45,233 bases of DNA. It comes from Treponema sp. (GTDB taxonomy: Bacteria; Spirochaetota; Spirochaetia; Treponematales; Breznakiellaceae). The notes under the pieces are model-generated. The model had not been told where the DNA came from. It saw nothing but the letters and a program-made list of their open reading frames with translations, and ran no database searches. Positions 29,913-36,569 of the stretch are shown in pieces. The number at the start of each line of letters is the position of its first letter. The first letter of the stretch is position 1. The stretch is taken from assembly GCA_031288495.1 (NCBI GenBank), contig JAITRH010000063.1:1-45233 (forward strand), in the 5' to 3' direction. The position numbers and the translations under genes were made by a program.

Positions 29913-31358
29913 CTACTTGCCTACACAGAAACGGCTGAACATCACCTCCAGCATATCCGCAGTAGACACCGCCCCGGTGATCTCTCCCAGGGCATCTACC
30001 CCTTCCCGGAGGAGCGGAGCGATAAGATCCAGCGGCTCTCCCCGGTCTGCTAATGCCAGGGCCTCTTCCACACGGTCTATGGCTAAGCGGATACGCCCTT
30101 TCTGCCGTTCCGTACCTATTCCCGATGCGGTTCCCAGGGCTTCCTTGCCTCCCCGGTCACGGGTCAGCCGGCCGGCTATGCTTGATGCCAGTTCCGGGAT
30201 CCCCCATCCGGTTTTGGCACTGATCCTCTGGAAAGCCTCGGATGACAGGGCGCCCCGTTCCGGCATAGCCCCCGGAGAGCACAGGTCAATCTTATTCCAC
30301 ACCGGGAGGATCCCCTTCCTATCCCCGGGAAGAAAATCAGGAAAAAACACCCTCCTATCCCCGGTATCGGATTGGCAGGAACCATCTACCACGTAGAGCA
30401 CCAGATCCGCGTCTTGGAGTAGTTCACGACTCCGTTCCATGCCCAGTTTCTCTATAGCTTCCCCGGGCTCAGCCTCGCGGATCCCCGCAGTATCCACCAG
30501 GCGGATGGGTATCCCTTCAATGGAAATCCACCCCTCTATCCAGTCCCGGGTCGTGCCGGGTATGTCCGTAACAATGGACCGGTCTTCTTTGAGGAGCAGG
30601 TTGAAAAGACTGGACTTCCCCGCATTAGGCCGTCCGGCAATCACCACCAAAGCACCCTCATGGTACAGCCGTTCCATACGGTAGGTCCAAGCGAGCCCCC
30701 GAAGCCGGGTAAGGGCTTCCTCTGCCAGGGCGCGGTCCGGCAGCCTGCCTGCCGCCTCATCATCCGGCCCGCCGGGGCTCCCCATAAACTCGTCCTCGGA
30801 ATAGTCTAAAAAAATTTCCGTTCCCGCGAGGACCTGTACGAGATGGTCCCGGATACCCAGGACTTCCTGTTCCAGGCTGCCGCTGAGCCGGTGCACCGCA
30901 TGAGCCCTTGCCCTATCGGTCTTGGCGGAAACCAGTTCCATCACCGATTCCGCCCGGGTGAGGTCCAGTTTCCCGTTCATAAACGCCCGGAAGGTGAATT
31001 CTCCCGGCAGGCTATCCCGGAACCCTGCGTTACGCAGCGCCCCCATCACCCCTCGGACCGTGGCAATACCTCCGTGGCAGGAAATATCCGCGCCGTCCTC
31101 GCCGGTATAACTTCGGGGGCCCCGGTATACCGAAACCAAGACTTCGTCGATTTTTTCGTTTTTTTCCAGGATCCAGCCATGAACCACGGTATTTCCCGGA
31201 GCCTCAAGCAGTTTGCGAGGCCGGGAAAAAACCGAAGCTACCAAGGGCAGGGCCCTTTTTCCAGAGGTTCTGATGACGGCCAGGGCGCATTCCGCCAAGG
31301 GCGTGGCCGGCGCGGCGATAGGGGCATCATCACCATAGGTATAACACAAAGGATTCAT
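29913..31358 (-). CDS. mnmE: tRNA modification GTPase MnmE
   Basis: MnmE, with MnmG, makes the cmnm5 modification of the wobble uridine in several tRNAs. The 481-residue protein has the N-terminal tetrahydrofolate-binding domain (TPLAECALAVIRTSG, then PRSYTGEDGADISCHGG). The inserted G domain carries G1 GRPNAGKSSLFN, DIPGTTRD, DTAGIRE and NKID. The C-terminal signature FCVGK is also present, equivalent to the usual FC(I/V)GK with the catalytic cysteine. The ATG at 31358 is chosen because the protein then starts in the family's usual place; the frame is open to 31499. Confidence 0.95.
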   Translation of the reverse strand: MNPLCYTYGDDAPIAAPATPLAECALAVIRTSGKRALPLVASVFSRPRKLLEAPGNTVVHGWILEKNEKIDEVLVSVYRGPRSYTGEDGADISCHGGIATVRGVMGALRNAGFRDSLPGEFTFRAFMNGKLDLTRAESVMELVSAKTDRARAHAVHRLSGSLEQEVLGIRDHLVQVLAGTEIFLDYSEDEFMGSPGGPDDEAAGRLPDRALAEEALTRLRGLAWTYRMERLYHEGALVVIAGRPNAGKSSLFNLLLKEDRSIVTDIPGTTRDWIEGWISIEGIPIRLVDTAGIREAEPGEAIEKLGMERSRELLQDADLVLYVVDGSCQSDTGDRRVFFPDFLPGDRKGILPVWNKIDLCSPGAMPERGALSSEAFQRISAKTGWGIPELASSIAGRLTRDRGGKEALGTASGIGTERQKGRIRLAIDRVEEALALADRGEPLDLIAPLLREGVDALGEITGAVSTADMLEVMFSRFCVGK

Positions 31359-31711: not shown

Positions 31712-32118
31712 GGTATGCCCTCTATGTCTGCCGGTATACCGTCTGAAGCTCCGGTTATACCGGCTAAGGTCTACGGTATACCGTCTATGTCTGCCGGTAT
31801 ACCCTCTGAAGCTCCGGGTATACCGGCGAAGGTCTACAGTATACCCTCTATGTCTGCCGGTATACCCTCTGAAGCTCCGGGTATACCGGCGAAGGTCTAC
31901 AGTATACCGTCTATGTCTGCCGGTATATCGTCTGAAGCTCCGGGTATACCGGCGAAGGTCTACGGTATACCCTCTATGTCTGCCGGTATACCCTCTGAAG
32001 CTCCGGGTATAAGCGCCGTTTCAGGCATTACCCGGTCCAAAGCCGCCGGTATACCGGGGAAGGTTCCGCTTACAAGCGCCGGGGTTCCCCTTATGCGGGC
32101 AATATCCTGCGGTATAAG
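31712..32118. repeat. 21-bp tandem array with a palindromic GGTATACC core in most units
   Basis: GGTATACC or a one- or two-base variant starts at 31712 and then every 21 bases through 32006, with further in-phase copies at 32048 and 32111. The 13-base spacers cycle through three types, so the array also has a 63-bp period. GGTATACC is its own reverse complement. Read on the plus strand, an open frame at 31715-32137 gives heptapeptides of the type GIPSMSA, GIPSEAP and GIPAKVY. A second plus frame is also open, and neither has a ribosome site, so coding is doubtful. The flanking 31359-31711 and 32138-32397 hold no gene I can support. Confidence 0.9.
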
Positions 32119-32397
32119 GGCGGAGGCATTCCGATAAGGGTATACCGCCTTACCCGTTTTAAAGGTGACCCGCAAATTGCACGGTCCACGCTCTAATGCT
32201 CCCCATAGGAGCCGCAAGCGGGCCGGAGCGCGCGCCCCGTGATGGCCCGCGGGGAGTGAAAACGATATGGACAGGGCGTATGAAGCGGCATATCGGGAGT
32301 ACCCCATCTGATTTTGTGGGTCCGGTTTAGGGCTTTGCCGGCGGTATGGCCTGGTCTGGCCCTTGACGCAGCCTATGCCTGAGGATGGGGCGGGGCC

Positions 32398-33525
32398 TTA
32401 CAGCCGGATGATCCGGGCATTGGTCAACACCTCCACCCCCGCCTCGGTGAGGAGTATGTCGTTTTCCAGACGGCAGCCTCCCTGTGCAGGGTCATAGAGA
32501 CCCGGCTCCAGGGTAAAGATCATACCCGGTTTCAGCACCCAGTCGTTGTCCGCCCGGTTACGCAGCGCCGGGGCCTCATGGGCCTCAAGCCCAATGCCAT
32601 GACCCAAGGCATGGGGCATGCTTTTCTTGGCATTGCTGAAAAAAACGTCCACTGCCGCAGCTATGGTTTTAGCCGCGACCCCGTCCCCGACCATAGCCAG
32701 GGCCAGCCGGTAGGCCCGCTCGGTGAGGGCGACCAGTCTTTCCTGGGTCCGAGAAAGGGGGGGCCGGGCAAAGGTCAGGGTAACATCGCTGGTATATCCC
32801 GCATACTTGATCCCAAAATCCAGAATGGAAAGCCCTGGAGCGGCAAAGTCCCCCCCGGTATAGGCCGGGAAGGGATGGATACCGAAACTCCGCTGCGGCC
32901 CTGCCGCCAGGGTCTCAAAACCCATGCCCTCGCAACCCCGCTTCCGGCATGCGGCTTCAATAAAGAGGGCCACCGCCTCTTCGGTCCGTAGTTCGCCGGA
33001 ACGGATCCGCTGTTCCAGTACGTGGATGAGTTCATTGGTGATGGCCGATAGGGTCCGGTATATCCCCAGCTCCTCCGCGTCTTTGATCGCCCTGAGCACC
33101 TCCACTTCCCGGTGGATCCCCCCATTCCGGCATAAGACCTCAAAATCAAAGAGGGCCCCCACGTAATGCAGGAAAAGGGGATAGGGCGTAACCGGAGGGA
33201 TTTCCACTTTGCAGCCCATGGGGATCTTGAAATAGGCAAGGGCGCCCTGGAGGGCCCTCAGGGGCTGCCGCTCAAATTCGGTATAGGCGATGACGCTGTC
33301 TGCCTCGGCATAGATCAGCGCTATATTGATATCCCAGGGAACCAAGAGGGAATGGCTTTTTCCATAGCGATCAAACCCCAAAAACAGCAGCCCATCCCCG
33401 GGATGCCCGGTCATCCAGCGAATCGCCGGATCCTGCCGGGCCTCGGTATGCTCAAACATCGCGAGGCTAACCCGCTCTTCGGCCATCCACCGGTACAGTT
33501 TGTTCCTACGCTCTTCATAACTCAT
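32398..33525 (-). CDS. M24-family aminopeptidase (Xaa-Pro peptidase)
   Basis: The 375-residue protein has the two-domain layout of Xaa-Pro aminopeptidases and dipeptidases: an N-terminal creatinase-like domain up to about 150, then the pita-bread catalytic domain. All five metal ligands are present: Asp236 in ILDFG, Asp247 in TSDVTL, His309 in GHGIG, Glu340 in TLEPG and Glu354 in RLEND. It is probably cytoplasmic and helps recycle proline-containing peptides. Its ATG overlaps the stop of the upstream threonine aldolase gene by four bases, so the two are coupled. Confidence 0.88.
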   Translation of the reverse strand: MSYEERRNKLYRWMAEERVSLAMFEHTEARQDPAIRWMTGHPGDGLLFLGFDRYGKSHSLLVPWDINIALIYAEADSVIAYTEFERQPLRALQGALAYFKIPMGCKVEIPPVTPYPLFLHYVGALFDFEVLCRNGGIHREVEVLRAIKDAEELGIYRTLSAITNELIHVLEQRIRSGELRTEEAVALFIEAACRKRGCEGMGFETLAAGPQRSFGIHPFPAYTGGDFAAPGLSILDFGIKYAGYTSDVTLTFARPPLSRTQERLVALTERAYRLALAMVGDGVAAKTIAAAVDVFFSNAKKSMPHALGHGIGLEAHEAPALRNRADNDWVLKPGMIFTLEPGLYDPAQGGCRLENDILLTEAGVEVLTNARIIRL

Positions 33526-34685: not shown

Positions 34686-35195
34686 CTACCGGAAGGTGGT
34701 GTTGACCCATTGGATAAATTCCGTAAGGGAAAATACCCTGATTTCCTTATCCTGGTTTGTACCGGTGGTGTATTTTTTATACTTCGCCGCATCCTTAAGC
34801 CAGGCAACGGCACCACTGCGGGCGCCGTTGCCATCCACAATAATCACCAGTTCCTTTTCCGGCATGGCCTCAATAAAATTAAGGTACAGATAGGGAAATT
34901 TCTCATCCACGCTCCCTGAAGACTGCTGCCATTTACACTCGATCCGGATTGGCCCTTTTGCGCTTTGACAGGTTTTGGGGAGTACCAAAAATTCCGTATA
35001 TCCGGGATGCTTATAAATCGTGTTAAAGGGACAATGCTTTAAAAGTACATCCTCCCCATAGGCATCCTTCCGCTGCGCCCAATCACGGAACATGACGATT
35101 TCAAACCCCTTGGCCTTAAAGGTGGATTCTACGGTACGCTCCAGTACTTTGCCCTGATGACAGGCATAGGCGCCTTGGGTATTATTGCACCGCAT
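34686..35195 (-). CDS. PD-(D/E)XK nuclease, probable type II restriction endonuclease
   Basis: The 169-residue protein has an endonuclease-like core: a helix HQGKVLERTVESTF, then the strand GYTEFLVLP and the E-x-K pair in IRIECKWQQSSGS (Glu86, Lys88), followed by VDEKFPYLYL. This matches the active-site order of PD-(D/E)XK nucleases. The start at 35195 is preceded by GGAGG at five to six bases; the frame is open to 35225. It overlaps the end of the adenine methyltransferase gene by 14 bases, the usual arrangement of a restriction-modification pair. The recognition site is unknown. Confidence 0.72.
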   Translation of the reverse strand: MRCNNTQGAYACHQGKVLERTVESTFKAKGFEIVMFRDWAQRKDAYGEDVLLKHCPFNTIYKHPGYTEFLVLPKTCQSAKGPIRIECKWQQSSGSVDEKFPYLYLNFIEAMPEKELVIIVDGNGARSGAVAWLKDAAKYKKYTTGTNQDKEIRVFSLTEFIQWVNTTFR

Positions 35196-36099
35196 AGGCC
35201 CCTCCCGCCGCCCCTTCATCCTCATCCAGGGCGGCCTGTAATCGTCTTTCCGTTACTTCACAGAACCCCCGCTCGATCTCGACGCCGATATAAAACCGCT
35301 CCCCAAGCCTCCTGCAGGCAAGGCCGGTGGTACCGCTCCCATTGAAGGGGTCAAGGATAATATCCCCCGGTTTGGTGGAAGCCAGGATGATCCGGGTCAA
35401 GAGGTTCAAAGGTTTTTGGGTTGGATGTTTACCGGTTTGCTTTTCCTGTTTCGCCGGCGTGGGAATCGACCACACGGACCGCATTTGGACCCCTTCTTTT
35501 TTGAGCTTATCCTCGGGAAAGACGCCGTTTTTCATGGCCTGGTAATTAAAGTAATGCTTCGCCTTTTTATCCTTCCGGGCCCAGAGCAGGGTTTCATGGG
35601 AAGCGGTAAAAAACCGGCAGCTTAGATTAGGGGACCCATTGGGCTTAAACCAGATAATATCGTTTAAGACATGAAAATGCTGCTTCTGCAAGGCATAGCC
35701 GCACTGATAGATGCTATGATAGGTCCCGCTTATCCACAGAGTTCCTTCAGGCTTTAAGATGCGGCGGCAGGCGGCTATCCAGGCCTCATGAAAGGCCGTA
35801 TCCTCGGCCACTCCCTTGCTGGTATCCCAGGCCCCTTTGTTCACCGGCGCCATGCGGCCATTATGACAGGTAACCCCGTTATTTGACAGCTTATACGGCG
35901 GGTCCGCAAATATCATGTCGATGGTATTCTCGGGAATACGAGGCAGGACTTCCCGGTAATCTTCATTATAGATGATGGCCTGTGCCGAAGTATAAAAAGG
36001 GCTTAACGCGGTTTGAGGCTGCGTAATCCCCGCAATAATCCGGTTAAAGGCTTTTTCAGGCATCCGTTCTATCACCTGAAAGGGTTCTCTCGTACCCAT
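35182..36099 (-). CDS. DNA adenine-N6 methyltransferase (beta class) of a restriction-modification pair
   Basis: The 305-residue enzyme has the catalytic motif DPPY at residues 66-69 and the SAM-binding FNGSGTT at 252-258. This order defines beta-class N6-adenine (or N4-cytosine) methyltransferases. The surrounding segments (LKPEGTLWISGTYHSIY, NLSCRFFTASHETLLWARK and GKHPTQKP) resemble the DpnA-like enzymes that I recall acting on GATC-type sites, but the specificity cannot be fixed by eye. It should protect host DNA from the nuclease encoded next to it. GGAGG lies just before the ATG. A 21-bp repeat array is located 160 bases upstream. Confidence 0.88.
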   Translation of the reverse strand: MGTREPFQVIERMPEKAFNRIIAGITQPQTALSPFYTSAQAIIYNEDYREVLPRIPENTIDMIFADPPYKLSNNGVTCHNGRMAPVNKGAWDTSKGVAEDTAFHEAWIAACRRILKPEGTLWISGTYHSIYQCGYALQKQHFHVLNDIIWFKPNGSPNLSCRFFTASHETLLWARKDKKAKHYFNYQAMKNGVFPEDKLKKEGVQMRSVWSIPTPAKQEKQTGKHPTQKPLNLLTRIILASTKPGDIILDPFNGSGTTGLACRRLGERFYIGVEIERGFCEVTERRLQAALDEDEGAAGGAYAVQ

Positions 36100-36260
36100 G
36101 TACCCTCCCTGGTTCTTATAATACCATATTTTTCCGTTTTTAGGAAGCTCCTGCCCAGGGTATCGGCGTTTATACGGGTATTTCCCTCTATACTACGGAT
36201 GCGCTTATGGACCCCCAGGGCGGCTGCAGGGATTCCATCTTCATATCCGCTCCGGGTGAA

Positions 36261-36441
36261 GTCTTGAGACAATGGGTTGCTGTCTAAAGACGGCAGGTTA
36301 TTGTCTAAAGACAATGAGCTGTTGTCTAAAGACGGCAGGGTGAAGTCTTGAGACAATGAGCTGTTGTCTAAAGACGGCGGGTTATTGTCTAAAGACAATG
36401 AGTTGTTGTCTAAAGACGGCAGGGTGAAGTCTTGAGACAAA
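36261..36441. repeat. Nine-copy 21-bp tandem array with a palindromic GTCT-NN-AGAC core
   Basis: GTCTTGAGAC or GTCTAAAGAC begins at 36261, 36282, 36303, 36324, 36345, 36366, 36387, 36408 and 36429, exactly 21 bases apart. Spacer and core variants repeat every four units, giving an 84-bp higher period. Each core is a near-perfect palindrome. On the minus strand an open frame (36072-36467, TTG start, no ribosome site) reads heptapeptides like SLDNNSL and SQDFTLP, but its 3' end overlaps the methyltransferase start and coding is doubtful. Confidence 0.92.
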
Positions 36442-36569
36442 AGGAACGCTCTTTTTCGTCCCCACAATCCGCTTCACCGGCGTCGGGCTTGAGCCCCCAA
36501 TCCGGGTAATCGGTGGACACCATTCCGGCGGCTTCACCGCACCCCTTGGGCAGGGGGATCCCTTTCCTG

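What the first reader, a model, noticed from the sequence alone, without database searches (positions are those of the whole stretch)
31712..32118. 21-bp array of GGTATACC palindromes
About fourteen consecutive units carry the 8-bp palindrome at an exact 21-bp step, two turns of B-DNA, so all sites face the same side of the helix. Phase is kept even in the decayed end (32048, 32111). Spacers cycle in threes. This looks more like a designed binding array or nucleoid site than a simple satellite, though it can also be read as heptapeptides.
Basis: partly seen in the sequence, partly recalled or inferred. Interest (0 to 1): 0.68.

Follow-up and report, generated by a model that had tools for sequence, protein, structure and literature searches.

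The report
Intergenic 21-bp hairpin-like repeat arrays
The array is real, but it is one of perhaps ninety non-coding tandem arrays scattered between genes in this termite-gut spirochete genome: the arrays share an almost rigid 21-bp step while their sequences differ, so it looks like a structured satellite with an unexplained preferred unit length rather than a binding site for one protein or a gene.

Summary
Fourteen consecutive 21-bp units (31712-32010) carry GGTATACC with at most one change each, the spacers cycle in threes (63-bp order), and phase is kept to 32111. The array lies between mnmE and an M24 peptidase gene, in a termite-gut Breznakiellaceae-like MAG (placement inferred from kinship and named relatives). 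It is not called as coding. It belongs to a genome-wide class: about 12 period-21 arrays in 355 kb of unselected contigs (~34/Mb), with fewer at 22-24 and none at 15-20. All are intergenic, apart from two weak calls made by the repeats themselves. Cores differ from array to array. GGTATACC is not enriched outside arrays, and control palindromes also form 21-bp arrays in the family. Units tend to be dyad-symmetric (Stouffer z 6.3 in 19 unselected arrays), indels inside arrays are very rare, and several arrays have stops in all six frames. Changes at paired positions show no G-U over A-C bias, so there is no general sign of RNA-level constraint. The flanks of mnmE and of the peptidase gene lack this array in congeners. 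Best reading: a hairpin-prone intergenic minisatellite amplified in register; no dedicated ligand shown. What fixes the length at 21 is open.

The parts
31712..32010 (.). Intact part of the array: 14 units of 21 bp with GGTATACC-like core; spacers cycle A-B-C (63-bp higher-order unit)
32011..32138 (.). Decayed end; phase kept, exact core at 32048, GGTATAAG at 32111
36254..36440 (.). Second array of the same class: 21-bp units, 84-bp order, core TTGTCTAAAGACAA; + strand RNA folds to one rod, -93 kcal/mol, z -13.9
29913..31358 (-). mnmE (tRNA modification GTPase) left of the array; context, not part of the element
32398..33525 (-). M24 family metallopeptidase right of the array; context

Best explanation
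The array is a non-coding intergenic minisatellite: short, partly dyad-symmetric 21-bp units that multiply in tandem by slippage or unequal exchange in register, probably helped by hairpins that units form while single-stranded. It is one of roughly 90 such arrays in this genome, each with its own sequence. In-register growth explains the tandem orders of 63 and 84 bp and the kept phase; dyad symmetry explains why a palindromic core is visible. Shown: intergenic, non-coding, many cores, one preferred period, dyad tendency, few indels, position not conserved between species. Inferred: the slippage mechanism, and the absence of a dedicated ligand or function. Not explained: why the unit length is 21 (sometimes 22-24) and never 15-20.
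For: Unselected contigs of the window's genome hold 12 period-21 arrays in 355 kb, a few at 22-24 and none at 15-20. All real arrays fall between called genes although only 26% of the sample is intergenic; the only two array loci inside calls (L028, L032) are weak calls (scores 9-11) made by the repeats themselves. Cores differ; control palindromes form 21-bp arrays too. Units are dyad-symmetric more than random intergenic 21-mers with the same conservation weights: Stouffer z 6.3 (19 arrays), 3.6 for periods 22-24 (11 arrays), about 60% of period-21 arrays contributing. About 2000 mismatches against roughly 5-10 internal indels in 30 arrays. Array absent next to mnmE or the M24 gene in congeners; G006 has a different array downstream of mnmE. 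Higher-order repeats of 63 and 84 bp.
Against: A plain slippage model does not predict one unit length across unrelated sequences, nor the same length in other phyla. Several arrays show no dyad symmetry (L176, L294, L305, L309), so hairpins cannot be the whole mechanism. The scarcity of indels could equally mean selection on phase. No strain or read data were available to show copy-number change.
Confidence: 0.55

Rival explanations
1. Phased platform for an architectural (nucleoid) protein that reads dyad symmetry, bendability or helical phase rather than a fixed sequence; 21 bp puts all sites on one face of the DNA.
For: Near absence of indels while about 23% of bases differ from the unit consensus; two symmetry centres one helical turn apart; conserved core against variable spacer in the GGTATACC arrays.
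Against: Periods of 22, 23 and 24 bp occur in the same genome; one array shifts from 22 to 21 (L290 12484-12806); core sequences unrelated; positions not conserved between species.
Confidence: 0.2
2. Transcribed element: the array acts as a long hairpin RNA (mRNA stabiliser, terminator or regulatory RNA).
For: Window arrays fold far better than shuffles on both strands (z -7.8, -9.0, -13.9, -9.8); array 2 has 14 G-U pairs on its + strand and none on the other.
Against: Changes at dyad positions are G-U or A-C equally often (134 against 118) with no per-array strand preference; several arrays do not fold better than shuffles; no consistent orientation to flanking genes; no Rfam match in the window.
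Confidence: 0.1
3. Hairpin elements spread by a single-strand (Y1, REP-associated-like) transposase and then amplified.
For: Some array families sit at several loci (GGTATACC type on contigs C10, C51, C92, C181 and related units on C39; 24-bp and 23-bp types at three loci each); Y1 transposases are strongly expanded in some congeners.
Against: The window's genome has only two weak Y1 matches; a 40-kb stretch of a congener with 18 Y1 copies (G009) showed no array. No GTAG or CGTC tag is kept in all units. Most arrays do not share flanks.
Confidence: 0.08
4. Heptapeptide-coding repeat (plus-strand frame 31715-32137, GIPxxxx).
For: Frame open for 140 codons; 21 is a multiple of 3; a sister array (L176) begins after a ribosome-site-like stretch and an ATG.
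Against: Not called as a gene; no significant codon-phase bias (p 0.39 and 0.18 for the two segments); sister arrays with stops in all six frames (L038, L186 9275-9519); periods 22, 23 and 24 exist; Ile is ATA in nearly every core although ATA is 16% of Ile codons in the genome.
Confidence: 0.05

Closest known systems
Bacterial intergenic minisatellites / VNTR loci
   Same: Tandem, intergenic, lineage-specific, higher-order copies
   Different: Here a single unit length dominates across dozens of unrelated sequences in one genome, with dyad-symmetric units and very few indels
REP / BIME elements (repetitive extragenic palindromes; PMC3733652, PMC2817692)
   Same: Short intergenic palindromes in many copies, some clustered; stems of 8-9 bp with short loops fit some units
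   Different: No GTAG or CGTC tag kept in all units, many unrelated sequences per genome, units abut head to tail every 21 bp, no linked transposase shown
Plasmid iterons
   Same: Direct repeats near two helical turns apart
   Different: Chromosomal-type gene context, many loci, no common core, no replication initiator gene next to the array

Membership tests
REP/BIME | GTAG or CGTC tag at one end of each palindrome | tested here: not met
   In the window array GTAG (as CTAC) flanks only spacer type C, one unit in three; CGTC appears only in part of units A and B
REP/BIME | Linked REP-associated tyrosine transposase | tested here: inconclusive
   Two weak Y1 matches in own genome, none next to the array; expanded in some congeners
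REP/BIME | Extragenic location | tested here: met
Minisatellite | Tandem copies of a unit of about 10-60 bp with higher-order duplication | tested here: met
Minisatellite | Copy-number variation between strains | not testable with these tools
   No second genome of the species or reads were used
Dedicated protein-binding array | Same core shared by arrays in the genome | tested here: not met
Heptapeptide-repeat protein | Open frame with codon-level constraint | tested here: not met
Structured RNA | Strand-specific retention of pairing through G-U | tested here: not met

The most novel reading that the evidence does not exclude
A length-determining, sequence-blind process (an enzyme or a replication intermediate with a 21-24-nt step) writes and maintains tandem arrays in intergenic DNA of these and some other bacteria, so that period is inherited while sequence is free.
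Probability: 0.12. Interest if true: 0.85.

Novelty: new variant of a known kind. Interest (0 to 1): 0.5.

Why it matters
Tandem repeats normally conserve sequence better than period. Here dozens of arrays of unrelated sequence keep one period, without coding, in one genome and, as by-catch, in other termite-gut and free-living bacteria. If the period is set by a mechanism, it would reveal how bacterial satellites arise; if by a protein, it would be a sequence-blind phased DNA platform. The arrays would also be candidate strain markers for uncultured termite symbionts.

Tried and rejected
Viral origin: 21 viral contigs, each with a single pair, near chance level by my rough estimate. Sharing of the CGAGACTTTCGT unit with viruses: none. 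Restriction-site or avoidance signal for GTATAC: observed 128, expected 144, none. Rfam: no match in the window. TIGR arrays considered because of alternating short repeats: described as encoding 36-nt guides (from memory; PMC12045711 listed but not read), does not fit a 21-bp step. A first dyad test with column shuffles (z 9) used too weak a null; replaced by random intergenic 21-mers (consensus only: z 2.9; conservation-weighted: z 6.3). Literature searches found no description of this class.

Full report
Observation. The window lies in contig C237 of a 2.72-Mb, 83% complete MAG. Its relatives with named records are termite-gut Treponema/Spirochaetaceae MAGs. I place it in the Breznakiellaceae by inference: a family member, G038, has exactly the length that I recall for T. 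azotonutricium ZAS-9 (from memory, not checked). Fourteen consecutive 21-bp units start at 31712. Nine have GGTATACC exactly and five have one change; three spacer types alternate, giving a 63-bp order with 94% identity and no indels. The decayed tail keeps phase to 32111.

Context. The array sits between mnmE (start at 31358, minus strand) and an M24 peptidase (end at 32398, minus strand). A second array with a different core lies at 36254-36440, between an N6/N4 DNA methylase gene and an uncharacterised predicted gene.

A class, not a single site. In 355 kb of unselected contigs of the same genome a lag scan found 12 arrays of period 21, with a few at 22, 23 and 24 and none at 15-20. Extrapolated, this is about 90 in the genome. 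Congeners G006 and G008 have several, G002 and G001 a few, G003 none in 95 kb. Two closed genomes of the family (G037, G038) have none in 440 kb, and 20 genomes sampled from other families of the order show no comparable arrays (three weak period-21 hits in 284 kb). Own-genome arrays lie between genes, while 26% of the sample is intergenic; the only exceptions are two weak calls on L028 and L032 that rest on the repeats themselves. GGTATACC arrays were found because they were searched for. None of the 12 arrays in unselected contigs has that core, control palindromes also form 21-bp arrays in the family, and outside arrays GGTATACC occurs as often as expected.

Shape of the unit. Conserved columns tend to be complementary to conserved columns around a dyad. 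Against random intergenic 21-mers carrying the same conservation weights, the combined z is 6.3 for 19 unselected arrays of period 21 and 3.6 for 11 arrays of periods 22-24. Six of the 19 show no sign of it. With consensus letters only, the excess is modest (5.9 pairs against 5.2, z 2.9). So dyad symmetry is a tendency of the class, not a definition.

Phase. Wrap-around alignment of 30 arrays gave about 2000 mismatches against consensus and only about 5-10 indels inside arrays, the remaining gaps lying in the padded flanks. From general knowledge neutral bacterial DNA has roughly one indel per 10-20 substitutions, so indels are scarce. In-register amplification can produce this without function, and so can selection on phase; I cannot separate them. 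The lag-based detection favours arrays without indels. Arrays with period 22-24, and one that changes from 22 to 21, show that exact two-turn phasing is not required.

Coding and RNA tests. Codon-phase bias is absent or inconsistent, and some arrays have stops in all six frames. The frame at 31715-32137 is not called as a gene. The window arrays fold very well as RNA, but across 39 arrays changes at paired positions give G-U and A-C equally often (134 and 118), with no per-array strand preference. Symmetry therefore looks like a property of double-stranded DNA or of the mutation process, not of a transcript.

Evolution. Homology to congeners upstream of mnmE ends within about 60 bp of its start, and neither gene has an array of this sequence beside it in congeners. 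In congeners the two genes lie on different contigs, so a full empty site could not be shown. The array's only relative elsewhere in the genome is a 170-bp stretch on contig C178 at 68% identity.

Conclusion. Most likely a hairpin-prone, in-register-amplified intergenic minisatellite. What sets the unit length at 21 is the open question, and gives the finding its interest.

Noticed in passing
window 34686-36099: Putative restriction-modification pair on the minus strand (PDDEXK_11 nuclease and N6/N4 DNA methylase), next to the second array. Recognition site unknown; no avoidance signal for GTATAC.
   Followed up: partly
window 36451-36526; L031 2077-2222; L166 7493-7648; L287 7348-7518; L285 105-271; L286 259-389; L183 12540-12604: Dispersed intergenic repeat of about 75-150 bp, with a CGGGCTTTAGCCCG-like palindrome in some copies, found next to arrays of different sequence and period in several loci.
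   Followed up: partly
G002, G005, G009, G022: Y1 transposase-like genes expanded to 17-25 copies in some relatives, only 2 weak ones in the window's genome.
   Followed up: no
L139 2560-2720, L156 7485-7593: Nostoc genomes hold 21-bp arrays with an ACTCATTAATGAGT-like palindrome, unrelated in sequence.
   Followed up: no
L096 1-154 and L116 2337-2809: Termite-gut MAGs labelled Prevotellaceae and Planctomycetaceae share the spacer CGAGACTTTCGT in their 21-bp arrays: horizontal transfer, mis-binning or chance, not tested.
   Followed up: partly
G000:C69:8302-9705: A second, 62% identical MnmE in the same MAG, possibly contamination of the bin.
   Followed up: no
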